Part shown: positions 39,881 through 52,839 of the stretch, piece after piece | How the letters are laid out: each line of letters begins with the position of its first letter | Position numbering within the stretch: the first letter of the stretch is position 1 | Origin: Flavobacterium tistrianum | GTDB lineage: Bacteria > Bacteroidota > Bacteroidia > Flavobacteriales > Flavobacteriaceae | DNA: 64,000 nucleotides | Direction of reading: 5' to 3' | NCBI RefSeq assembly: GCF_003254545.1 | Contig: NZ_QJRH01000065.1 | Coordinates: 1-64,000 of the forward strand | Notes under the pieces: generated by a model | Told to the model about the DNA's origin: nothing | Databases searched by the model: none | What the model saw: the letters and a program-made list of their open reading frames with translations, nothing else | Position numbers and translations under genes: made by a program

Positions 39881-39902
39881 AAAATAAAAAATACCAAAAT
39901 AG

Positions 39903-39952
39903 AAATTCCAAATTCCAAGAGTTTAAGCTTTTTGGAATTTGGAATTTTTTAT
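39903..39952. terminator. Long inverted repeat acting as bidirectional terminator
   Basis: A perfect 16-bp stem AAATTCCAAATTCCAA / TTGGAATTTGGAATTT with a 13-nt loop is followed by a T-run. It lies between the convergent carbonic-anhydrase-like and LytTR genes. The arm is itself a direct repeat of AAATTCC, and similar elements are dispersed in flavobacterial genomes. Confidence 0.8.
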
Positions 39953-39969
39953 TATTGGAATTTCATAAA

Positions 39970-40683
39970 TTAGAGGTTGATTTTTTCGAAGAAAGTATTT
40001 TTATAGCTTTCGCTGATTGGAATTCTTTTATCGCTTATCAAAACTTTGTTTTTCTGAATCGATTTTACATGTTTGATATTGATAATATACGATCTATGAA
40101 TTCTTGCAAAACCTTTGTTTGAAAGCAGATTTTCAAGCTTGATTAAACTGATTAAAGTCAGCGTAAATTTATTATCTGTAGTATAAATTTTGACATAATC
40201 TTTAAGACCTTCTATAAAAAGAATATCGGCAAAATTCAATTTTACGTTTTCATATTCAGCTCGAACAAACATAAAATCCTGTTCTATTTCAGGCGTATTA
40301 TTATTTTCAGTAGGCACTTGAGTTGCCGCAGGCTGTAAAACCTGCTGCGCTCTTACAACAGCTTTTAAAAATCGATGAAACGGAATTGGTTTTACTAAAT
40401 AATCGACTGCTCCTAGATTAAATCCTTCTACAGCATAATCAGAATAAGCAGTTGTAAAAATAACCAGTGGCTTTTTTTCTATGGTATTTAAAAAATCAAT
40501 TCCAGAAAAATGAGGCATCTGAATATCGAGAAATATCAGATCAACATTATTCTGATTGATAAATGAAACGGCATCAATAGCATTATTGAAAGTGCTAATT
40601 AGTTCCAGAGTATCAACCTTTTTGACAAAATCCTGTAATAGATCTACAGCTAGAGGTTCGTCATCAATAATTACACATTTCAT
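39970..40683 (-). CDS. LytTR family response regulator
   Basis: The 237-residue protein has a receiver domain with the acidic pair DDE at 7-9, phospho-acceptor Asp53 (DLIFLDIQMPHFSG) and the conserved Lys in VDYLVKPIPFHRF. A Gln/Thr-rich linker (QPAATQVPTENNNTPEIEQ) leads to a LytTR DNA-binding domain (MFVRAEYENVKLNFADILFIEGLKDYVKIYT, FARIHRSYIINIKHV). It is the partner of the LytS-type kinase encoded just upstream. A -7 box (TACTTTTG, minus strand, 40727-40720) in the 128-bp gap suggests it can also be transcribed alone. Confidence 0.93.
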   Translation of the reverse strand: MKCVIIDDEPLAVDLLQDFVKKVDTLELISTFNNAIDAVSFINQNNVDLIFLDIQMPHFSGIDFLNTIEKKPLVIFTTAYSDYAVEGFNLGAVDYLVKPIPFHRFLKAVVRAQQVLQPAATQVPTENNNTPEIEQDFMFVRAEYENVKLNFADILFIEGLKDYVKIYTTDNKFTLTLISLIKLENLLSNKGFARIHRSYIINIKHVKSIQKNKVLISDKRIPISESYKNTFFEKINL

Positions 40684-40719
40684 CTTTTCTGAATTGGTTT
40701 TTAAAATTTATTTTGCATC

Positions 40720-40727
40720 CAAAAGTA
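40720..40727 (-). promoter_or_regulatory. -7 promoter box for the LytTR gene
   Basis: On the minus strand the sequence is TACTTTTG, matching TAnnTTTG, 36 bases before the ATG. Just upstream lies an inverted repeat AAACCAGTA (40733-40741) / TACTGGTTT (40768-40776), which could be a regulatory site. Confidence 0.5.
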
Positions 40728-40811
40728 ATTTGAAACCAGTAAATTAAGTTTTAAAATTTTCATAAAATACTGGTTTTTACAAATCAAATTAAGCGTTAAC
40801 TGTTATTGTTT

Positions 40812-41927
40812 TTAATCTATTGCGGTTTTAATTTCGTCTAACTTTAAATTCAAATGAACTCGGTAATAGTTATCATCTTGTGTAATGGTCAGTTCGTGTG
40901 CATTTGGATATAGGAGATCAAGACGGTTTTGAATATTGACTAATCCAATTCCTGAATTTTCTGGATCTTTCACATAGTTTTCAATTGTATTTTCGATCCA
41001 AAAATCAAGATTATGATCTGTAATCAGGATTTTGATTTTTACGTGAGCTGCACCTTTATAATCAGTTCCATATTTAAAAGCATTTTCTACAAAAGAAATC
41101 AATAATAAAGGCTCGATAAACTTGTTTTTGGTATCGCCATGAACATTGATCACAATGTCTTCAATATTGTTTAATCGCAGTTTTTGCAAATCGATATAAT
41201 TTTGAATATAATTGACCTCTTTTTCTAAAGCCACCGTTTTGTTGTCTGTCTCATACAGCATATAGCGCATAAGTTCGGACAAGGTTACGATGGCATCAGG
41301 GACCAAATCAGATTTTTTGTGTGCGAGAGAATAAATACTGTTTAAGGAATTAAATAAAAAATGCGGATTGGTTTGTTTGCGCAAATAAATTAATTCTGTA
41401 TTTGTTCTATGAGTTTCGGCAATCAGTTTATTTTGCTGATTATTATAAAATTCAGTTAATGTTCTAATAATTGCTGAGATTGTAATAATGAGAATATAGA
41501 AAAATGAAGGAGCAATTTTGAAAAAAAACGGTTGTCTCATTTCTATTCTGTGATGCATTTTGCCACCTTTAGGAAAAAAATGTGGGTCACGAATAATGGT
41601 TTCAGAATGCATCATATTTTCGGGTCTTAAATGTCTAAATTCTGGAACAAAATAATTTAATCGTATTGCCATAAATAGGACAATCAAGCCAATAGCAAAC
41701 GCACCATACAGCCAATATTTTTTTTGCAGCAGATAATTTGGAACCAAATAAAAATAGTTCAGATAAAACAAGAAAATTCCTGAAAGCCATTGGGCATAAA
41801 AATCGTTGTCGAGCTTAAACGGACTTTCATAAAACTGAATTAATGAAGTCAGAATAAAGAAGATCCAAATCATGAAATGGAATAATATTTTGTTGTAGCC
41901 TGTATTTTTAATGGTATCGATCTGCAT
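40812..41927 (-). CDS. LytS-type sensor histidine kinase
   Basis: The 371-residue membrane kinase has four helices (about 14-31, 46-63, 72-90, 140-157), then a coiled linker (FYNNQQNKLIAETHRTNTELIYLRKQ). The His_kinase domain has phospho-acceptor His189 (TNPHFLFNSLNSIYSLAHKK). The ATPase part has LLISFVENAFKYGTDYKGAAHVKI (N box) and SGIGLVNIQNRLDLLYP (G box). The predicted periplasmic loop at about 91-139 is rich in His and Met (for example MMHSE, DPHFFPKGGKMHHRIEM), which suggests metal sensing, perhaps copper. The gene abuts the DUF4907 stop codon with no gap and is followed by its LytTR regulator. Confidence 0.9.
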   Translation of the reverse strand: MQIDTIKNTGYNKILFHFMIWIFFILTSLIQFYESPFKLDNDFYAQWLSGIFLFYLNYFYLVPNYLLQKKYWLYGAFAIGLIVLFMAIRLNYFVPEFRHLRPENMMHSETIIRDPHFFPKGGKMHHRIEMRQPFFFKIAPSFFYILIITISAIIRTLTEFYNNQQNKLIAETHRTNTELIYLRKQTNPHFLFNSLNSIYSLAHKKSDLVPDAIVTLSELMRYMLYETDNKTVALEKEVNYIQNYIDLQKLRLNNIEDIVINVHGDTKNKFIEPLLLISFVENAFKYGTDYKGAAHVKIKILITDHNLDFWIENTIENYVKDPENSGIGLVNIQNRLDLLYPNAHELTITQDDNYYRVHLNLKLDEIKTAID

Positions 41928-42260
41928 TTACAATTTTATTTTTAATAAAATTAGTTCATTTTTGGTTACCGTTGGAGATAAGTTTTGTTTGAGTTTTTGC
42001 TTTACTAAATCAGCAACTTTCAAAGCATCGCTCTCTGTTTCAAAACTTTTAGTATCGCTTATTACGGGAATAATAGATTGTTTAATTAAAACTCTTTCTT
42101 GGTAGGTAATTGTATATCCCCATCCAGAATTTGTTTTAAAAGACGCGGTAGTTAAGGCTTCTTTTTTTGCGCACGCAGTAAAAAGTAAAAAAAGTGCAAA
42201 AACGATTAAATTCTTCTGGATAGTAATCCAGAAGAATTTTTTAATTTTAGTTATCATCAT
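41928..42260 (-). CDS. DUF4907 family lipoprotein
   Basis: The 110-residue protein has a lipobox (LFLLFTACAKKEA) after a hydrophobic signal. The mature domain has SGWGYTITYQERVLIKQSIIPVISDTKSFETESDALKVADLVKQKL, which fits the DUF4907 family, of unknown function. It overlaps the Kelch gene by 14 bases and directly abuts the kinase start. The order Kelch-DUF4907-LytS-LytTR therefore looks like one coupled unit. A role as a periplasmic partner of the Kelch lipoprotein or of the sensor kinase is an inference from this coupling. Confidence 0.8.
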   Translation of the reverse strand: MMITKIKKFFWITIQKNLIVFALFLLFTACAKKEALTTASFKTNSGWGYTITYQERVLIKQSIIPVISDTKSFETESDALKVADLVKQKLKQNLSPTVTKNELILLKIKL

Positions 42261-43254
42261 CGCTTTGTTCGTCTAATGGCTTGAATTCCCAAGCATCGTC
42301 AAAGTAAGTAGATCCAACTCTTCCTAACATATAAAATCCGCGGTTATTGATTGAGAAGCCAACAGCATCCGTTCTTGTAGCGCCTTCCATCGGAGTTCTT
42401 TCTGTCCATAAATCAGTTGATGGATTATACTCCCAAACTGTTTTGATGTTTTCGCCTCCTACAATATATCCTAAACCATTCATAGAAAAACTTGAAGCAT
42501 TAGAACGAACAATCGCATAATCGTCGTTGTAGCTGTAATCGTCATCAGTATCTTTATCAATGTCTCTTTTTCTTGTCCAAACATCTGTTGATGGATCAAA
42601 CTCCCAGAAATCTTCCTGATAAACGCCATTGTTTACGCCAGTTACTAAATATGCTTTGTCTGCAATTGTAAACACTGTCGCATTGCGTCTTTTGTTACCG
42701 CTAAAACCATTTACAAGAGTCCAAGTATTGGCTTGATCATCGTATTGATAAAAATCTTTTAAATAGTTTCCGTCGTAACCTGTTCCAAAATACGCTTTGC
42801 CACCAACCTGAAAACCTACGGCAGCGTAACGAGCTGTTCCTGCAAAATCTGTTTTTTGTGTCCAGCTGTTTGTAGAAGGATCATATTGATAGAAATCCTT
42901 CAGTTTGTTTGTTCCGTCATAACCAAGGCCAACATAGCCTTTTTCGTTTAATGCAAAACTAGAAGCAGAACTTCTTCCAATACCGCCAAAATCAGCTTTC
43001 TGTTCCCAATAATCTCCATTTGAGTTGTAAACCCATAAATCTTTTAAATAAACGTCGCCAGTATAGCCGCCTACTACATAAGCATAATCTCCAATAACGA
43101 AACTTGTAGCACTAGATCTTGCAGGGCCATCAAAGGCTGATTTTTTAATCCAGTTTCCTACCAAATCATCATCGTCATCATCATTGCTGCAGCTTATAAA
43201 AAAGAGGCTTGAAAAAAGCGCTGCGAATAAAATTCCTTTTTTTAGATTAATCAT
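42247..43254 (-). CDS. Kelch-repeat lipoprotein, probably surface exposed
   Basis: The 335-residue protein has a lipoprotein signal (LFSSLFFISCSNDDDDDDLVGNW). Six or so Kelch repeats of about 48 residues follow, with cores like ARSSATSFVIGDYAYVVGGYTGDVYLKDLWVYNSNGDYWEQKADF. They form a six-bladed beta propeller. Such propellers bind glycans or proteins. The run of Asp right after the acylated Cys resembles the surface-export signal of Bacteroidetes lipoproteins (Ser-Asp-Asp type), so the protein may face outward. It overlaps the DUF4907 gene and follows a beta-barrel gene by 14 bases. Confidence 0.9.
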   Translation of the reverse strand: MINLKKGILFAALFSSLFFISCSNDDDDDDLVGNWIKKSAFDGPARSSATSFVIGDYAYVVGGYTGDVYLKDLWVYNSNGDYWEQKADFGGIGRSSASSFALNEKGYVGLGYDGTNKLKDFYQYDPSTNSWTQKTDFAGTARYAAVGFQVGGKAYFGTGYDGNYLKDFYQYDDQANTWTLVNGFSGNKRRNATVFTIADKAYLVTGVNNGVYQEDFWEFDPSTDVWTRKRDIDKDTDDDYSYNDDYAIVRSNASSFSMNGLGYIVGGENIKTVWEYNPSTDLWTERTPMEGATRTDAVGFSINNRGFYMLGRVGSTYFDDAWEFKPLDEQSDDDN

Positions 43255-43268
43255 AGTGTATTTAATAT

Positions 43269-44111
43269 TTATTGTTTGTATTTGATCCCGATTCCTAAAA
43301 CGTAGCCATTTCCGGTATTATAGTCGTATATTTTATGGTCATTGCTATCTAGTAAATTGTATTTTTTGTTGAAATCATAACCAGCTTTAAAATTTAAAAA
43401 CCAATTGCCTCCAACATTTCTTTCGTATTCTAAAGCCGAAGTCATTTGCGATAAAGCCGCTTTTTCGGCATTGTCATCTGCACTGGATGTTTCGTCTAAA
43501 TGATAAAAGTTTCCATTAAAACTATTTGTCAGACTGAATTTGTTTCGATCGTTATTGGAATATGAAATTTTTGAGTCTGGAAATCCAATTCTAAAATCGG
43601 TTTTATCATTCATTTTATAATCAAAAGCAACAATCGGTGTAATCTTTGGTGCTCCAAAAATTGATGTTCGGCCAAATCCAGCAATTAAACTTAGTTTTGA
43701 ACCAATCTGTTGGCTGATTTCTAAACTTCCTAAAACAGTAACATCTGAAAAATCCAGTTTGCTCTGAAAATTAGCTGTTGGAATAACTGAAAGCTTACAT
43801 TTTGTTTTTTCTGCTATTTCAGATGAATATTCAAACTTGTTTTGAATTTGATTGTACTTATCTTGATCTGCATAAAAATCATAAGGATTCAATTCATAAT
43901 TCACCTTCAGATTAGAATATTCTAACGTGTTCGCTATTTTGCTTTTTGTTTCTATTTTTTTCTGATAAAAAACAGCAATGTTTGTTTCGCTAAAATTTAT
44001 CTTTTCTGTTGGCTCAGTTTTGAAATTAATAGCGGCGCTAAAATTTTCCTGAGCTTTCAAACCTAAAAAGGAAATCAAAAAAAGAGAACAAACTAAAAAC
44101 CTTACTTTCAT
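43269..44111 (-). CDS. Putative outer-membrane beta-barrel protein
   Basis: The 280-residue protein has a signal peptide (LVCSLFLISFLGLKAQ) and many alternating strands with aromatic ends (NIAVFYQKKI, KLSLIAGFGRTSIFGAPKITPIVAFDYKM, NGYVLGIGIKYKQ at the C-terminus). This indicates a small outer-membrane barrel, possibly of the DUF6268 type, but I am not sure of the family. It is the first gene of the minus-strand cassette. A -7 box (TAATTTTG, minus strand, 44136-44129) lies 17 bases before the ATG. It could be the outer-membrane partner of the Kelch lipoprotein. Confidence 0.75.
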   Translation of the reverse strand: MKVRFLVCSLFLISFLGLKAQENFSAAINFKTEPTEKINFSETNIAVFYQKKIETKSKIANTLEYSNLKVNYELNPYDFYADQDKYNQIQNKFEYSSEIAEKTKCKLSVIPTANFQSKLDFSDVTVLGSLEISQQIGSKLSLIAGFGRTSIFGAPKITPIVAFDYKMNDKTDFRIGFPDSKISYSNNDRNKFSLTNSFNGNFYHLDETSSADDNAEKAALSQMTSALEYERNVGGNWFLNFKAGYDFNKKYNLLDSNDHKIYDYNTGNGYVLGIGIKYKQ

Positions 44112-44128
44112 TATTTATTTTATTGGTT

Positions 44129-44136
44129 CAAAATTA
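44129..44136 (-). promoter_or_regulatory. -7 promoter box for the barrel/Kelch/LytS cassette
   Basis: On the minus strand the sequence is TAATTTTG, matching TAnnTTTG, 17 bases before the ATG at 44111. Confidence 0.55.
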
Positions 44137-44319
44137 GATGGATGACGCCCTTAAAAAAAAGAAGATATATGTATGACGTGTTTTGATAGACAAAATCGTC
44201 GTTTTTAAGGCCGAATTAAAATTTTAGAATATAATTTAGATTATAGATTGTTTTATGCTGTTTGTAGCCTAAAAAAGCGCAGTAGTATATGTTATAGTGT
44301 GTTGCCAAAGTGTGCAATT

Positions 44320-44327
44320 TATATTTG
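44320..44327 (+). promoter_or_regulatory. -7 promoter box for the DUF4270 gene
   Basis: TATATTTG matches TAnnTTTG, 15 bases before the ATG at 44343. A TTG lies at 44302-44304, slightly closer than the usual -33 spacing. Confidence 0.6.
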
Positions 44328-44342
44328 CTCAAAAATTAGATT

Positions 44343-45668
44343 ATGCACAAGTTTATATTGATACTGCTTTTTATACTGACCTTATTTTCATGTGGTACAG
44401 ATACAGATACTGGAGAATTTACTGTTGGGTCAGATTATTTGGCTTTAAGCAATAAAGTGATTATGATTGATACGGTGACAGTCAATATGTCGACAATTAA
44501 TTTTGATTCACTCGCCACTTCTAACCGAGGAAGAATTCTGATAGGGAATTACGATGATCCTATTTTCGGAAAAGTAAAATCAGATAGCTATTTTCAGCTT
44601 TCTACAAGTAATTATGCTTTGTCTAGCGTGGGTTCAGATACAGAGTCGGTGAATTATGTATTTGATTCGATTTCTATGATTCTTAAGTACGACAAATATT
44701 ATTATGGAGACACGACGAGAGTTCAGACATTTAATATTTATAGATTAACTCAAAAAGTTAAGCCCAACAAAGACGATAATAATTTCTATAATAACTCAAC
44801 GCTTACTTACAGTCCAGAAAGCCTAGGTAGAATATCTTATAAACCGAGACCGAAGGAAAAAGATTCGATTAATATTCAGATGAGTAAAGAATTTGGCGAA
44901 GCTCTTTTTCAAAAAATAAAGAAAAGAGAAGTTACAGATTTTGATAGTTTTACAGAATATCTGAAGGGATTTGTACTGGTTCCAGAAAATTCAAGTTCTT
45001 CGAATGTTATCGGATTTAGTGTTTCTGAAAGTAAGGTTCGGTTATATTATTCGAAGTACCAAACAGACAACGAAACTCCACTTATAATAGATTTTTCAAT
45101 TTTAGATGCTACTAAGCAGTTTAATTCTATTTCGCTCGATAAAACAGGAACATTACTGCAAAACCTACCAGTATCCACGGGTACATTATCTAGTACATTA
45201 CTCAATAATCAGGGATTTATACAATCGGGAACAGGAGTTGCTTGTCGGATAGACTTTCCTAACATAAAACAGTTTAAGAATATTTCTGCAAATGGTGCTA
45301 TTGTAGATGCAGAATTAATTCTTAAGCCAGTTAATAATACGTATTCAGAAAAATATCCTTTGGCAGATTCGTTAACTGTTTATGTAGGGGATAATTTAAA
45401 TAGAATAAGCGGAACGCTTCTAAATGCAGCAGGTTCTTCAGTTTATGGAAAGCTGAGTAAAAGCAGAGATGAGTTTAATGAAAATGTTGGGTATTCCATT
45501 CCGATCGGAAACTTTCTCCAGAAAGAAATGCTAAAACAATCTGATTCAAGATCATCGCTCATCTTAACATTGCCCGGAATTGCACAATCTGTTGATAGAA
45601 TCGTTTTGGGCAATCAAAAACACGCGAACAATAAAATTCAGCTGAAAATTTATTACATCTCTTACTAA
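44343..45668 (+). CDS. DUF4270 family lipoprotein
   Basis: The 441-residue protein has a lipobox (FILTLFSCGTDTDTGEF) and the DUF4270 pattern. This includes VGSDYLALSNKVIMIDTVTVNMSTINFDSLATSNRGRILIGNYDDPIFGKVKSDSYFQL near the N-terminus and strand-rich segments to the end (LTLPGIAQSVDRIVLGNQKHANNKIQLKIYYISY). This family is confined to Bacteroidetes and has no proven role; surface or periplasmic attachment is likely. The stop codon directly abuts the start of the outer-membrane protein gene, implying a functional pair. It has its own promoter box. Confidence 0.85.
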   Translation: MHKFILILLFILTLFSCGTDTDTGEFTVGSDYLALSNKVIMIDTVTVNMSTINFDSLATSNRGRILIGNYDDPIFGKVKSDSYFQLSTSNYALSSVGSDTESVNYVFDSISMILKYDKYYYGDTTRVQTFNIYRLTQKVKPNKDDNNFYNNSTLTYSPESLGRISYKPRPKEKDSINIQMSKEFGEALFQKIKKREVTDFDSFTEYLKGFVLVPENSSSSNVIGFSVSESKVRLYYSKYQTDNETPLIIDFSILDATKQFNSISLDKTGTLLQNLPVSTGTLSSTLLNNQGFIQSGTGVACRIDFPNIKQFKNISANGAIVDAELILKPVNNTYSEKYPLADSLTVYVGDNLNRISGTLLNAAGSSVYGKLSKSRDEFNENVGYSIPIGNFLQKEMLKQSDSRSSLILTLPGIAQSVDRIVLGNQKHANNKIQLKIYYISY

Positions 45669-46904
45669 ATGAAAAATAAAATTGTTCTATGGAGTGGCTT
45701 CCTTTTAATGTCGCTAACTTCATTTTCTCAAAGCATTTCAAGCTCTCCATATTCACTTTATGGCGTAGGAAGTTTGTATGATTCAGATTTTGGTTATCTG
45801 TCTTCAATTGGCGGTTCAGGAATTGCTTTGCCTTCAGATACTTTTATCAATAATTTAAATCCAGCATCGTTAGGATCCATGTATCAGAATCATTTTCTTT
45901 TTGATATCGGAGGGAAAGCTATCCAAACAACTTATCAGAGCAGTAATCGTACAGAGAAGCGAAATAATTTTCAGTTTTCTCATTTGGCTCTTGCTTTTCC
46001 AGTTACAAAAAATTCAGGTTTTAGTTTAGCGCTTAGGCCATATTCTAGTTCTGTGTTTAAAATCTCAAATTTAAAACTTCCAATTGCAGATAGCCAGGAA
46101 TATTATTACGTTACGGCACAAGGATCGGGAGGTTTGAATAATTTAGATTTTTCATACGGATATCGACTTGGAAAAAAATTGACAGTAGGAGCAACTGGAA
46201 CAGTGCTTTTTGGAAATACAGTTGATGATCGTGCTTTTTTAATTTCGAATGCTATTACTACCATTCATAAGCAAACAGATTATCGAGGAGTTCGTGCAAC
46301 ATTAGGAGCTCAATTTAAAATAGATTCTACATTTACAATAGGAACGACATTCAAAGTTCCTACAAGAATAAATGCTTCCAAAGTACAATCTGTAACAAGT
46401 ATTGCAGATGAGGTAGAATCTTCTATAGAAACCGATAAAGCTTCAGATACCGACGATTATTATATGCCTCTAGAAATAGGTTTTGGAGCCAGTAAGCGAT
46501 TTAAAAATAATTTGAATGTGACTTTAGATTACGAAAAAAGCTTCTGGGGAAACACCAATCAATCTGAACTTTACGGAAAATTTGTAAATCAGGATCGTTT
46601 TGCGCTAGGATTTACGTATAGTGCCAATAAAAATGTTAGAAGATATTGGGATAGAGTTGGGTATGCAGCTGGTGTTAATTTTGATAACGGTTATTTAGAA
46701 ATTGACAAACAGCGCGTCAATAGCGCATCTATTTCTATTGGACTAAATCTGCCAATTGATAACACCTTTTCGTCACTTAATATTTCTTATTCTTATGGAC
46801 AGAAAGGCAGAATCGCAAATGATCTAATAAAAGAAAACTACCACAAAATATCATTCAATCTATCGTTGGACGGAATTTGGTTCGTCAAGCGAAAGTTTGA
46901 ATAA
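45669..46904 (+). CDS. Outer-membrane transport-like barrel protein
   Basis: The 411-residue protein has a signal peptide (LMSLTSFSQSISSS). It continues with SPYSLYGVGSLYDSDFGYLSSIGGSGIALPSDTFINNLNPASLGSM and strand-rich sequence ending SFNLSLDGIWFVKRKFE. The N-terminal segment (short helix, then NPAS) resembles FadL/OmpP1-type outer-membrane proteins of Bacteroidetes. The family assignment is tentative. It starts at the base after the DUF4270 stop and is convergent with murI, with one base between. It may be the membrane partner of the DUF4270 lipoprotein. Confidence 0.78.
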   Translation: MKNKIVLWSGFLLMSLTSFSQSISSSPYSLYGVGSLYDSDFGYLSSIGGSGIALPSDTFINNLNPASLGSMYQNHFLFDIGGKAIQTTYQSSNRTEKRNNFQFSHLALAFPVTKNSGFSLALRPYSSSVFKISNLKLPIADSQEYYYVTAQGSGGLNNLDFSYGYRLGKKLTVGATGTVLFGNTVDDRAFLISNAITTIHKQTDYRGVRATLGAQFKIDSTFTIGTTFKVPTRINASKVQSVTSIADEVESSIETDKASDTDDYYMPLEIGFGASKRFKNNLNVTLDYEKSFWGNTNQSELYGKFVNQDRFALGFTYSANKNVRRYWDRVGYAAGVNFDNGYLEIDKQRVNSASISIGLNLPIDNTFSSLNISYSYGQKGRIANDLIKENYHKISFNLSLDGIWFVKRKFE

Positions 46905-49427: not shown

Positions 49428-52091
49428 CTAAAATTGTTGTCCAATGATAAAGTGTGTTTCCCAACCATTAGCTTTTGTTTGTCCTGGAAGAGCGTCAAAT
49501 CCGTAACCAAAGTCAATACCTAATAATCCAAATGCAGGCATGAATACACGTAAACCAGCACCAGCAGAACGATTTAAATCAAATGGGTTGTAATCTTTGA
49601 ACGTTGGATATGATGAACCTGCTTCTAAGAACGTTAAAGCAAAAATAGATGCCGATGCTTTTAATGTAATTGGGTAACGTAATTCCATAGAGAATTTGTT
49701 GTAAATCGTTGCTCCAATTGCATCACCATTTGCATTTACAGGAGTCAAAGAGTTGTTAGGATAACCTCTCAACTGAATTGTCTCTCTACCGTCCATTGAA
49801 TAGTTTGCCATACCATCACCCCCTAAGTAAAAACGCTCAAACGGAATCACACCTCTTTCTTGGTTATAAGCTCCTAAGAAACCAAACTCTGTAAGGGTTC
49901 TTAATACTAGTTTTCCATAAACTTTAGTATACCAGTCTCCTTTAAATTTAACTTTATAATATTCTAACCAGTTGTATTTTTTCTGATCGACTTTTGCTAC
50001 ATCGGTATCAGCGCTTGCATAATCAGATCCAACACTTGTAATTTTTCCAGAACTATCAGTTTTGTAATAATCACCTTTATTAAGAGGCTGACCATAATCA
50101 TCTGATCTGCTTTCACCAGTATATTGTGTTTTATATTCTTTTTGGTTTTTCAAATCACCATAATCAATACCGTTAAATAATGAATATGGAGGTGTAACTT
50201 TTGCAGTAATACTAAACTCAGAACCATAAGTCGGGAATATTGGGTTTACCCCTTTATTACTTCTTGAAAGTCCAATAGTATATGCTAAGTTTCTAGATGC
50301 ACCATTACCAAAAGTAAACAAACCAGTGTTATAATTGTTCAAGTCGTAGTGCTGATAACTTAAAGATTGTGATAATACAAAATAGTCATCTGGCACTGTT
50401 AATCTTTTTGCTAGACCAACTTGAATTGTAAAAATATTAAAACTTTTGCTTTTATCAACAGTTCTGGTGATGTAATTGTTAAGAAATTGCTTACTGTATG
50501 AAATAGATGAACTAAATTGTACAGGTTTTTTCCCTCCAAACCATGGTTCTGAGAAAGATAAACTATAGGTTTGGAAATAAGTACTTCCTTGCAAACGAAG
50601 CGCAACTTTTTGTCCGTCTCCCATTGGTAAAGGCTTGTAAGCTTCTTTGTCGAACAATTTACGTGCCGAGAAGTTGTTAAACGAAAGTCCCAATGTACCA
50701 ATGAAACCTCCACCGCCATAACCTCCTTGAAGTTCAACCTGGCTAGATCCTTTTTCTACTACATGATATTCAATATCAACAGTTCCTGCTCCAGCATCAA
50801 CATTTTTAAATTTAGGATCGATTGCCTCAGGGTCAAAGAAACCTAATTGACCAATCTCACGAATTGTTCTAACTAATTGCTCTTTACTATATTTTTCACC
50901 TGGTTTGGTTCTTAACTCGCGGTAAATAACGTGGTCGTTTGTTTTATCATTTCCAACAACAGTAATTTTGTTGAAATAAGCGATAGGGCCTTCAGTTACT
51001 CTAATTTCAAAATCGATAGTATCATTAACTGTTTTTACCTCTACGGCATTAATATTCGAGAACAAATAACCATTGTTTTGGTATAAGTTGGTAATATCTT
51101 CTGCATCTGGCTTGGACTTATCAGCAATTCTTTTTTCTAATAAAACTCCGTTGTAAGTTTCTCCTTTTTTGATTCCTAAATAACGGCTTAATAGCTGATC
51201 AGAATAAACGGTATTACCTAAGAATTTAATATTTCCGAAGTAATATTTATTTCCTTCTTCTACATTAATCTTAATTGCAAGCGTATTTTTTTGCTTGTTA
51301 TATTGTACAGAATCGTAAATAATACGAGCATCGCGATATCCTTTTTCTTTGTAGGCTGCGATAACTTTTTCTAAGTCAGTTTTGTATTTCTCTGGAATAA
51401 ATTTAGAAGCTTTAAATACGCGAATGAAATTTTTCTGTTTGGTATCTTTCATCGCGGCACGCAACTGGGTATCTGTAAGTTGTTTATTTCCAGTAAAATC
51501 AATGCTGCTGATTTTTACCTTATCTCCTTTGTCTATTCTGATAAGCATATTAACTTGATGCCCATTAATGGTGTCAGGAGTATTTGTAATAGTAACTTTT
51601 GTATTATAAAAGCCTTCTTTTTTGTATTTGTTTTCGATGTAATTTTTAGTAGTTGTAATTAAGTTTTCGTTGACAATTTTGTTCTTTGTCAAGTTGTTAT
51701 CCTTAATTAGTGCTTCGACTTTACTTTTCTTGACACCAACAATTTTAACCTCATTTAATTTAGGAAGCTCAACGATATCTAAGTCTAAATAGATACTGTC
51801 ATTTTCTACTTTATTAACGTAGAATGCGATTTCATCAAAAAGCCCCAGTTTTCCTAATTTTTTAATTGCGCTGCTTATTTCTTCTCCAGGTACAGTAATT
51901 TCCTGTCCTTTTTGAAGTCCTGAAAAGGTAACAACAGTCTGTTCATTGAAGCTTATTTTACCAACAACAGAAACTTTAGCTAGAATATATTTTTTCCCTT
52001 GATCAAAAGGAACTCTTTCTTGTGCTTTAATTTGTGAAAAACTACCCAAAAGTAAAAGGGTAAGGACTATTTGTATTTTTTTTTGCAACAC
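49428..52091 (-). CDS. bamA: Outer membrane protein assembly factor BamA
   Basis: BamA inserts beta-barrel proteins into the outer membrane. The start is ambiguous. A GTG at 52091 (MLQKKIQIVLTLLLLGSFSQIKAQ) gives a clean signal peptide and 887 residues. A GTG at 52115 would add eight residues and overlap uppS by 17 bases. Longer starts at 52229 are rejected. POTRA domains (YILAKVSVVGKISFNEQTVVTFSGLQKG, then several ISSIDFTGNKQLTDTQL-like units) precede a 16-strand barrel with the conserved GGDGMANYSMDGRETIQLRGY region. The C-terminus (ETHFIIGQQF) is the typical barrel end. It lies in the uppS-bamA-ompH-ompH cluster. Confidence 0.95.
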   Translation of the reverse strand: MLQKKIQIVLTLLLLGSFSQIKAQERVPFDQGKKYILAKVSVVGKISFNEQTVVTFSGLQKGQEITVPGEEISSAIKKLGKLGLFDEIAFYVNKVENDSIYLDLDIVELPKLNEVKIVGVKKSKVEALIKDNNLTKNKIVNENLITTTKNYIENKYKKEGFYNTKVTITNTPDTINGHQVNMLIRIDKGDKVKISSIDFTGNKQLTDTQLRAAMKDTKQKNFIRVFKASKFIPEKYKTDLEKVIAAYKEKGYRDARIIYDSVQYNKQKNTLAIKINVEEGNKYYFGNIKFLGNTVYSDQLLSRYLGIKKGETYNGVLLEKRIADKSKPDAEDITNLYQNNGYLFSNINAVEVKTVNDTIDFEIRVTEGPIAYFNKITVVGNDKTNDHVIYRELRTKPGEKYSKEQLVRTIREIGQLGFFDPEAIDPKFKNVDAGAGTVDIEYHVVEKGSSQVELQGGYGGGGFIGTLGLSFNNFSARKLFDKEAYKPLPMGDGQKVALRLQGSTYFQTYSLSFSEPWFGGKKPVQFSSSISYSKQFLNNYITRTVDKSKSFNIFTIQVGLAKRLTVPDDYFVLSQSLSYQHYDLNNYNTGLFTFGNGASRNLAYTIGLSRSNKGVNPIFPTYGSEFSITAKVTPPYSLFNGIDYGDLKNQKEYKTQYTGESRSDDYGQPLNKGDYYKTDSSGKITSVGSDYASADTDVAKVDQKKYNWLEYYKVKFKGDWYTKVYGKLVLRTLTEFGFLGAYNQERGVIPFERFYLGGDGMANYSMDGRETIQLRGYPNNSLTPVNANGDAIGATIYNKFSMELRYPITLKASASIFALTFLEAGSSYPTFKDYNPFDLNRSAGAGLRVFMPAFGLLGIDFGYGFDALPGQTKANGWETHFIIGQQF

Positions 52092-52098
52092 TAAAAAA

Positions 52099-52839
52099 TT
52101 ATTTAATTTGTTCACTGGTTTTTCCAAATCTACGTTCTCTTTTTTGATAACTAATAATAGCCTCATATAAATCTTGGTCTTTAAAGTCTGGCCACAAGAC
52201 ATTAGTAAAATACAATTCTGCGTAGGCAATCTGCCACAGCAAAAAATTACTTATTCTATGTTCTCCACTTGTTCGTATTAATAAATCTACGTCTGGTAAA
52301 TTTTGCGTGTAAAGATGCTCATTTATAATTGAATCGTCAATAGTGTCTATTGAAATTATATTATTTTTAACTTTATCACTAATTGCTTTTACAGCATTTA
52401 CCAGTTCCTCTCTGGAGCCATAACTTAAAGCGAGGGTAAGGGTTAAACGAGTATTATTTTTAGTTTTTTCCATAACATCCAAAAGTTCTTTTTGGGCTGT
52501 TTTTGGTAATTTATCAAGATTTCCAATTGCATTAAGTCTGATATTGTTTTCTTGAAGGGTAACAAGTTCTTTTTTTAATGAATTGATCAATATTTTCATC
52601 AATGCCTGAACCTCCAATTTTGGTCTATTCCAATTTTCTGTAGAAAAAGCATATAGGGTTAAATACTCAATTCCAAGTTTGGCTGAGGTTTTAATGATTT
52701 CCTTTACAGATTTTGTTCCATTTTCATGGCCAAACGCGCGTAAAAAGCCTTGTTGTTTTGCCCAGCGCCCGTTGCCGTCCATGATAATGGCAAGGTGTTT
52801 AGGTAAGTTTGTGTGATCTATTGATTCTATTAAATTCAT
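52099..52839 (-). CDS. uppS: Undecaprenyl diphosphate synthase (isoprenyl transferase)
   Basis: UppS extends farnesyl diphosphate with eight isopentenyl units to make the C55 carrier lipid for peptidoglycan and other glycans. The 246-residue enzyme has the catalytic motif HLAIIMDGNGRWAKQQ (Asp21). It also has HENGTKSVKEII, TLYAFSTENWNRPKLEV, and the C-terminal RTSGEHRISNFLLWQIAYAELYFTNVLWPDF, all hallmark regions. It follows the DUF6089 gene by 3 bases and precedes bamA by at most 7 bases, so it is the second gene of an envelope operon. Confidence 0.96.
   Translation of the reverse strand: MNLIESIDHTNLPKHLAIIMDGNGRWAKQQGFLRAFGHENGTKSVKEIIKTSAKLGIEYLTLYAFSTENWNRPKLEVQALMKILINSLKKELVTLQENNIRLNAIGNLDKLPKTAQKELLDVMEKTKNNTRLTLTLALSYGSREELVNAVKAISDKVKNNIISIDTIDDSIINEHLYTQNLPDVDLLIRTSGEHRISNFLLWQIAYAELYFTNVLWPDFKDQDLYEAIISYQKRERRFGKTSEQIK

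What the first reader, a model, noticed from the sequence alone, without database searches (positions are those of the whole stretch)
39970..44111. Coupled barrel/Kelch/DUF4907/LytS/LytTR cassette
The genes overlap or abut (14-bp overlap between Kelch and DUF4907, zero gap between DUF4907 and the kinase). A surface propeller lipoprotein, a second lipoprotein of unknown function and a two-component system in one unit looks like a self-contained envelope sensing system.
Basis: partly seen in the sequence, partly recalled or inferred. Interest (0 to 1): 0.6.

Follow-up and report, generated by a model that had tools for sequence, protein, structure and literature searches.

The report
Kelch partner of a second BAM cap
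Beside spare copies of two parts of the machine that builds the outer membrane sits a conserved set of genes (a propeller-shaped surface lipoprotein, a small envelope protein and a sensor-regulator pair), which suggests that many Bacteroidota carry a second, switchable cap for that machine.

Summary
Genes and junctions are as described, but the cassette is half of a larger unit. Divergent from it, across 231 bp, lie paralogues of two Bacteroidota BAM subunits: BamH2 (44343-45668) and BamG2 (45669-46904). BamG2 passes the curated BamG cut-off (410 vs 250 bits); BamH2's predicted fold matches only the three solved BamH chains at E<=0.001. Searching with Kelch alone, 64 of 64 named loci of at least 14 kb have BamH2 beside it and 63 have BamG2. 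All 22 sampled genomes with a second DUF4270 gene have Kelch next to it. Kelch-linked BamH copies form one clade (100/99) apart from 35 others. Kinase (42/64), DUF4907 (48/64) and DUF6268 barrel (17/64) are less constant. Published work reports BamG2/BamH2 as not appreciably expressed on rich medium and BamH2 as lacking the hairpin that binds BamM; its text mentions no Kelch. Best reading: BamG2-BamH2-Kelch is an alternative extracellular BAM cap, switched on by the LytS/LytTR pair through a shared promoter region. Complex formation, BamA docking and regulation are inferred. A covarying RNA hairpin at the Kelch/DUF4907 junction is conserved in Flavobacterium.

The parts
43269..44111 (-). DUF6268 outer-membrane barrel, first gene of the Kelch operon; optional (13 of 29 phylum-sample loci)
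   Evidence: partly deleted relic in L049
42247..43254 (-). Kelch beta-propeller lipoprotein, probably surface exposed (Cys followed by SNDDDDDD)
   Evidence: 64 of 64 counted named homologues lie beside BamH2
41928..42260 (-). DUF4907 small lipoprotein without the acidic surface signal (CAKKEA), probably periplasmic; AF2 fold with no PDB match at E 0.001
40812..41927 (-). LytS-type sensor histidine kinase; extracytoplasmic loop not conserved between genera
39970..40683 (-). LytTR-type response regulator
44343..45668 (+). BamH2: DUF4270 lipoprotein, paralogue of BamH
   Evidence: Foldseek top hits 9n2d_C, 9his_G, 9hjm_G
45669..46904 (+). BamG2: BamG-family FadL-type outer-membrane protein
   Evidence: NCBIfam BamG 410 bits vs cut-off 250; PDB 9n2d_B 'Bam G' 7e-32
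44112..44342 (.). Shared divergent promoter region with conserved blocks in Flavobacterium
44129..44136 (-). TAATTTTG, -7-like box of the Kelch operon
   Evidence: TAnTTTTG at the aligned place in 12 of 14 loci
44320..44327 (+). TATATTTG, -7-like box of bamH2
   Evidence: 13 of 14 loci
44181..44297 (-). CTAYAA-type half-sites at 44297-44292, 44267-44262, 44246-44241, 44189-44184, the last inside the dyad TTTTGTCTATCAAAA (44195-44181); candidate regulator sites
   Evidence: function inferred
42208..42239 (-). RNA hairpin (14-bp stem, 4-nt loop) just after the Kelch stop, inside the DUF4907 signal-peptide codons
   Evidence: covariation

Best explanation
The window holds a divergent operon pair for a second version of the extracellular part of the Bacteroidota BAM machine. 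BamG2 (barrel), BamH2 (surface lipoprotein) and the Kelch propeller (surface lipoprotein) form an accessory complex in which BamG2 docks on BamA and BamH2-Kelch replaces the BamH-BamM canopy over the insertion site. The LytS-type kinase and LytTR regulator switch both operons on, through the shared 231-bp region, under a condition not met on rich medium. DUF4907, a periplasmic lipoprotein, modulates the kinase or the periplasmic face. A hairpin after the Kelch stop lowers or uncouples expression of DUF4907-kinase-regulator relative to Kelch. Shown here: gene content, conservation, the single clade of Kelch-linked BamH2, family or fold membership of BamG2 and BamH2, lipoprotein signals, conserved promoter blocks, covarying hairpin. 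Inferred: complex formation, BamA docking, client switching, regulation by this pair, the roles of DUF4907 and the hairpin.
For: Neighbours: BamH2 within 3.2 kb of Kelch in 64 of 64 and BamG2 in 63 of 64 named loci of at least 14 kb. All 22 genomes with two DUF4270 genes among 395 have Kelch beside one of them. In the genus, 14 of 14 genomes with the cassette have two DUF4270 genes and 10 of 10 without it have one (Fisher 5e-7). Tree: 33 Kelch-linked versus 35 other DUF4270, one side of a branch, 100/99, in all 200 bootstrap trees. BamG2 passes the BamG equivalog and shares the N-tail motif with BamG. BamH2's fold hits only BamH chains at E<=0.001 (1e-21 to 4e-17), and the better of its two weak BamH_fj stretches is N-terminal (residues 4-107); [quoted passage not shown] That paper says BamH2 lacks the hairpin that binds BamM, so another canopy partner is open, and that BamG2/BamH2 are not appreciably expressed on rich medium, which suits a regulated unit. 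Divergent promoters with conserved -7-like boxes and half-sites, two of them 21 bp apart. Tree distances of Kelch, BamH2 and BamG2 correlate (r 0.80 to 0.91, n 71), as expected of co-inherited genes.
Against: No physical or expression data link Kelch to BamG2/BamH2. PMC12578637 did not detect BamG2/BamH2 by proteomics in B. thetaiotaomicron, and its bamH bamH2 double mutant had a stress phenotype like the bamH mutant. In F. [quoted passage not shown] BamH2 fails the BamH_fj cut-off (36 vs 420 bits) and finds no BamH chain in PDB by sequence. Four loci have Kelch-DUF4907 without a local BamH2 (L048, L051, L054; L149). A kinase is missing near Kelch in 22 of 64 named loci, and linked regulators do not form one clade over the phylum. 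The half-sites are exact in only 8 to 12 of 14 Flavobacterium loci and are not seen in 11 other loci except one looser tandem match in L035 and one half-site in L096. No test here shows that the regulator binds them.
Confidence: 0.55

Rival explanations
1. BamG2-BamH2-Kelch is a surface complex unrelated to BamA: a FadL-type channel with a two-lipoprotein lid that imports a hydrophobic or glycan-linked compound, with its own two-component regulator.
For: BamG2 belongs to the FadL-type barrel superfamily (weak TbuX hit 4.5e-6). Five loci of the genus carry a gene of about 236 aa between kinase and regulator, a Dioxygenase_C protein in the one tested (L041, 3e-10). BamG2/BamH2 are not among the subunits reported in the published BAM complexes.
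Against: BamG2 scores 410 bits on the curated BamG model (cut-off 250) from profile position 2 on and shares the N-tail motif with BamG. PMC12578637 says the B. [quoted passage not shown]
Confidence: 0.25
2. One reading: a stand-alone envelope sensing system in which Kelch and DUF4907 feed a signal to the kinase, BamG2/BamH2 being only neighbours or targets.
For: Zero gap between DUF4907 and kinase in the window; 18 linked regulators of Flavobacteriaceae form one clade (99/95).
Against: Kelch is more constantly linked to BamH2/BamG2 (64 and 63 of 64) than to a kinase (42 of 64). The kinase loop is not conserved. DUF4907 stood without Kelch in 13 of 20 loci of another order.
Confidence: 0.15
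3. The cluster is an idle or decaying accessory paralogue kept near bamA, without a distinct role.
For: Published deletions of the subunit homologues are viable; low expression on rich medium (PMC12611786). DUF6268 is partly deleted in L049.
Against: The neighbourhood is kept across the phylum and in an Ignavibacteriales genome (L180); promoter blocks and a covarying hairpin are conserved in Flavobacterium.
Confidence: 0.05

Closest known systems
Bacteroidota BAM complex: BamA-D-G-H-M-P of F. johnsoniae and the BamA-G-H-I-J-K complex of B. thetaiotaomicron (PMC12611786, PMC12578637)
   Same: A BamG-family barrel and a BamH-fold lipoprotein; surface lipoproteins as canopy parts; in the window the cluster lies close to bamA (49428-52229).
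   Different: A paralogous BamG2/BamH2 pair in one cluster with a Kelch propeller instead of BamM or BamI/J/K, plus DUF4907 and a two-component pair; BamH2 is shorter and lacks the BamM-binding hairpin (that paper's legend).
BT1785-BT1786 (BamG2-BamH2) of B. thetaiotaomicron (PMC12578637)
   Same: A BamG paralogue and a BamH paralogue in a putative operon; Bacteroides congonensis (L226) has BamG2-BamH2 divergent from Kelch-DUF4907.
   Different: No Kelch partner is mentioned in that paper's text (0 hits for Kelch, 0 for DUF); the B. thetaiotaomicron locus itself was not examined here.
LytS/LytTR two-component systems (BtsS/BtsR type)
   Same: His_kinase and LytTR domains; half-sites about 21 bp apart, as recalled for LytTR sites.
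   Different: Genomic link to BAM paralogues; the regulator scores well below the BtsR cut-off (134 vs 246 bits).

Membership tests
BamG family | passes NCBIfam NF053685 (BamG) cut-off of 250 bits | tested here: met
   410 bits, profile positions 2-397 of 397
BamG family | extended N-terminal tail that reaches BamA | tested here: inconclusive
   N-tail motif S-P-Y-S-x-x-G-x-G shared by the window protein and the genome's own BamG; in the 72 BamG2 rows S, Y, S, G, G reach at least 90% and P at least 60%; threading and BamA contact not testable
BamH family | passes NCBIfam NF053686 (BamH_fj) cut-off of 420 bits | tested here: not met
   36 bits; the genome's other DUF4270 scores 613
BamH family | BamH fold | tested here: met
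   AF2 pLDDT 88.7; the only hits at E<=0.001 are BamH chains 9n2d_C, 9his_G, 9hjm_G; TM (query) 0.64, 13-14% identity
BamH family | hairpin that binds BamM | not tested
   PMC12611786 legend says BamH2 of F. johnsoniae lacks it
BAM complex | physical association with BamA | not testable with these tools
   no multi-chain prediction or pull-down available
Surface-exposed lipoproteins | lipobox Cys followed by acidic residues | tested here: met
   Met for the window's Kelch (CSNDDDDDD) and BamH2 (CGTDTDTGE), not for DUF4907 (CAKKEA). Over the 29 phylum-sample loci, two or more acidic residues at +2 to +7 in 16 of 29 Kelch, 15 of 26 BamH2 and 1 of 29 DUF4907; the simple scan picked a wrong Cys or none in several rows
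LytS/LytTR two-component system | His_kinase and Response_reg plus LytTR domains | tested here: met
Kelch/NanM-type mutarotase | passes the NCBIfam NanM and YjhT cut-offs | tested here: not met
   53.7 vs 416 and 52.3 vs 256 bits. Against this, Pfam NANM is just over its cut-off (48.7 vs 45 bits)

The most novel reading that the evidence does not exclude
Bacteroidota and relatives carry a second, inducible cap for BamA, built of BamG2, BamH2 and a dedicated Kelch propeller, under a two-component switch that exchanges the machine's extracellular half to insert or retain a different set of outer-membrane and surface proteins.
Probability: 0.4. Interest if true: 0.87.

Novelty: new variant of a known kind. 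Interest (0 to 1): 0.68.

Why it matters
The extracellular half of the Bacteroidota BAM machine was described in 2025, with BamG2/BamH2 left as extra copies without a known use that are not appreciably expressed on rich medium. This locus gives them a constant third partner and a likely switch, which makes the question 'what is the second BamGH for' directly testable: activate the regulator, tag Kelch or BamH2, and see whether BamA comes along and which surface proteins change.

Tried and rejected
Rejected: (1) DUF4907 as the core of the unit. It stood without Kelch in 13 of 20 loci of the order of G238, and 3 of 22 genomes with two DUF4270 genes have Kelch but no DUF4907 (L096, L097, L098). 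(2) A conserved kinase sensor loop: no conserved residues between genera. (3) A known fold for DUF4907: no PDB match at E<=0.001, best 0.36. (4) Kelch as NanM epimerase: far below the NCBIfam cut-offs, although just over Pfam's NANM cut-off. (5) BamH2 found in PDB by sequence: no BamH hit by single sequence or profile; the fold search found BamH. (6) One clade of linked regulators over the whole phylum: not supported, 5 changes on the tree (33 linked rows chosen by me, and 22 of 48 fetched unlinked loci used, the rest lost by my ORF filter). (7) An iron signal: B. thetaiotaomicron BT1785-86 stand in an iron stimulon table with 3.6 and 0.437, which I read as fold change and a non-significant P (PMC10434189, one passage). 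(8) sigma-70 scan of the region: 44 sites found vs 51 expected, uninformative.

Literature: DUF4907 0 papers; DUF4270 1 paper; BamH2 or BamG2 34 papers by text, 20 listed, of which two (the BAM papers) concern these proteins, 14 not seen; Kelch, Bacteroidetes, lipoprotein, BamH (3 of 4 terms) 218 papers, 20 listed, none of which joins Kelch with BAM as far as the listing shows; Fjoh_1681-1686 none (locus numbers guessed); BT1785-BT1788 2 papers. I read passages and part 1 of section 5 of PMC12611786, passages of PMC12578637 and of PMC10434189, and the abstract and outline of PMC9950754; no paper in full, no supplements. No preprints are held.
Full report
OBSERVATION. The regulator is 128 bp from the kinase.

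WHAT WAS MISSED. Divergent from the cassette, across 231 bp, are a DUF4270 lipoprotein gene (44343-45668) and, at zero gap, a FadL-type barrel gene (45669-46904). The barrel passes the NCBIfam BamG equivalog (410 bits, cut-off 250); the DUF4270 protein does not pass BamH_fj (36 vs 420). The same genome holds one other DUF4270 (BamH, 613 bits) and one other match to the barrel (BamG, 464 bits) elsewhere. The predicted DUF4270 structure (pLDDT 88.7) has only three Foldseek hits at E<=0.001, the BamH chains of F. johnsoniae, B. thetaiotaomicron and P. gingivalis. By elimination these are the counterparts of BamH2 and BamG2 named in PMC12611786 and PMC12578637. bamA (POTRA and Omp85 domains) and two OmpH genes lie 0.9 to 5.3 kb beyond BamG2.

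CONSERVATION. (a) Phylum sample of 395 genomes: DUF4907 in 29. Kelch is adjacent in 29 of 29, DUF4270 in 26 of 29 (not L048, L051, L054), BamG2 in 24 of 29 (not L043, L048, L051, L054, L055), kinase plus regulator downstream in 19 of 29, DUF6268 in 13 of 29. (b) Same sample searched for DUF4270: 22 genomes have two DUF4270 genes; two further genomes (G054, G163) show two matches that I judged to be pieces of one gene. DUF4270 detection is weak outside the class, so more second copies may be missed. Of the 22, 19 carry the Kelch-DUF4907 cassette and the other three (G107, G347, G363) have Kelch beside DUF4270 without DUF4907. In the genus, 14 of 14 cassette genomes have two DUF4270 genes and 10 of 10 others have one (Fisher 5e-7). 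The 35 other DUF4270 loci looked at had no Kelch in the stretch held, in 30 of them only about 1.5 kb each side. Of these, 64 loci of at least 14 kb were counted and 16 shorter ones dropped: within 3.2 kb of Kelch, DUF4270 in 64, BamG2 in 63 (not L224), a regulator in 50, DUF4907 in 48, a kinase in 42, DUF6268 in 17. They include Parabacteroides, Bacteroides congonensis, Chryseobacterium, Chitinophaga, Flavobacterium, Maribacter and an Ignavibacteriales genome (L180, domains checked). The set is ranked by likeness to one Kelch protein, so it is not an even sample. (d) Order of G238: DUF4907 in 43 of 295 genomes. Of 20 loci fetched, 4 have the full BamG2-BamH2-Kelch-DUF4907 set (L133, L134, L142, L148), L149 has Kelch-DUF4907 without BamH2, L150 has Kelch-DUF4907 on a contig cut too near to tell, L138 has a more distant Kelch homologue one gene away, and 13 have DUF4907 without Kelch.

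PHYLOGENY. 33 Kelch-linked DUF4270 proteins form one side of a branch with 100/99 support against 35 others, in all 200 bootstrap trees. Three of the 35 (L100-L102, from genomes with Kelch-DUF4907 but no linked BamH2) lie between the Kelch-linked clade and the other 32; I labelled the 35 by lack of a Kelch neighbour and tested only the window genome's copy against the BamH_fj model. This fits one old duplication that has kept its Kelch neighbour. Pairwise tree distances of Kelch, BamH2 and BamG2 correlate (r 0.80, 0.83, 0.91; 71 loci), which shows co-inheritance, not contact.

ANATOMY. Kelch and BamH2 of the window carry lipoprotein signals followed by acidic residues (CSNDDDDDD, CGTDTDTGE), the mark of surface export in this phylum; in the phylum-sample loci two or more acidic residues at +2 to +7 were counted in 16 of 29 Kelch and 15 of 26 BamH2, with several rows misread by my simple scan, against 1 of 29 DUF4907. 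DUF4907 in Flavobacterium is thus a lipoprotein without this mark; in several others it has only a hydrophobic N-terminus, so a periplasmic domain is the simplest reading. It is small (three strands and two helices after the signal, pLDDT 86.9) with no PDB match. BamG2 shares the S-P-Y-S-x-x-G-x-G motif of the tail that in BamG passes through the barrel wall to BamA (structure from PMC12611786).

REGULATION. In 14 aligned loci of the genus, a TAnTTTTG box precedes the Kelch operon in 12 and TATATTTG precedes bamH2 in 13. That these are Bacteroidota -7 boxes is recalled; PMC12611786 mentions conserved -33 and -7 motifs without letters in the passage seen. Between them lie half-sites CTAY(A/C)A at -186, -156, -135 and -78 (exact in 8, 8, 10 and 12 of 14 at the aligned place), the middle two 21 bp apart, plus the dyad TTTTGTCTATCAAAA. 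I propose these as regulator sites; in 11 loci of other genera they are not seen apart from one looser tandem match in L035 and one half-site in L096. Of the linked regulators, 18 from Flavobacteriaceae form a clade (99/95), one row labelled Flavobacteriaceae (L206) falls with Weeksellaceae, and over the phylum the label needs 5 changes, so pairs were probably recruited or replaced elsewhere.

HAIRPIN. Just after the Kelch stop, inside the DUF4907 signal-peptide codons, is a 14-bp stem with a 4-nt loop. In 26 rows of the genus, 96.9% of 260 cells of the 10 core pairs are standard pairs (shuffled 91.1%), 12 cells change on both sides (0 of 500 shuffles as high), and sliding the partner by 1-3 columns drops pairing to 40-61%. 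The rows are related, so the shuffle count is not a probability. L186 is out of register in this alignment because its hairpin has another sequence; it was left in. L057, of the same genus, has no comparable hairpin and was not in the alignment; L049 is imperfect; of seven other-genus loci folded none shows this hairpin. In L042 the change turns Trp to Arg and Gln to Arg while keeping the pair, so pairing rather than the peptide appears to be selected. A partial terminator or an mRNA-stabilising 3' end that sets Kelch above DUF4907-kinase-regulator is the likeliest role (inferred).

MECHANISM. Published facts (PMC12611786, passages and part of section 5): BamG binds the rear of BamA and carries BamH; BamH and BamM form the canopy; BamH2 lacks the BamM-binding hairpin; BamG2 and BamH2 are not appreciably expressed on rich medium and can be deleted. 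PMC12578637 did not detect the B. thetaiotaomicron pair by proteomics and found the double mutant's stress phenotype similar to that of the bamH mutant. Put with the constant Kelch neighbour, I take Kelch as the missing canopy partner of BamH2, and the two-component pair as the switch in those lineages that have it. The chief doubt is that no data show BamG2/BamH2 binding BamA; a BAM-independent FadL-type surface complex is the main rival.

VERDICT. The cassette is real, and is part of a phylum-wide BamG2-BamH2-Kelch unit. I found no description of that unit in the listings or in the passages read; both BAM papers have no occurrence of 'Kelch' in their main text. It is a variant of a known kind, with a testable role.

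Noticed in passing
L032, L037, L040, L041, L042, between kinase and regulator: A gene of about 236 aa lies between kinase and regulator; in L041 it is a Dioxygenase_C (intradiol-type) protein with a lipoprotein-like start (3e-10). The others were judged by size and place only.
   Followed up: partly
L048:5241-9161: Three tandem Kelch genes followed by DUF4907, with no BamH2 or BamG2 found beside them.
   Followed up: no
L049, between bamH2 and Kelch: The DUF6268 barrel gene is partly deleted, with start and end pieces still recognisable by eye, while the promoter blocks remain.
   Followed up: partly
window 40684-40811: The kinase-regulator gap holds an inverted repeat (ACCAGTA ... TACTGGT) and a TACTTTTG box, seen by eye, so the regulator may have its own promoter.
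   Followed up: no
window 39902-39948: A 20-pair stem with T-rich tail lies between the hexapeptide gene and the regulator gene; likely a terminator.
   Followed up: no
L141, L143: DUF4907 follows a gene that looks, by eye, like an NtrC-type regulator or its end in two order-of-G238 genomes, a different context.
   Followed up: no
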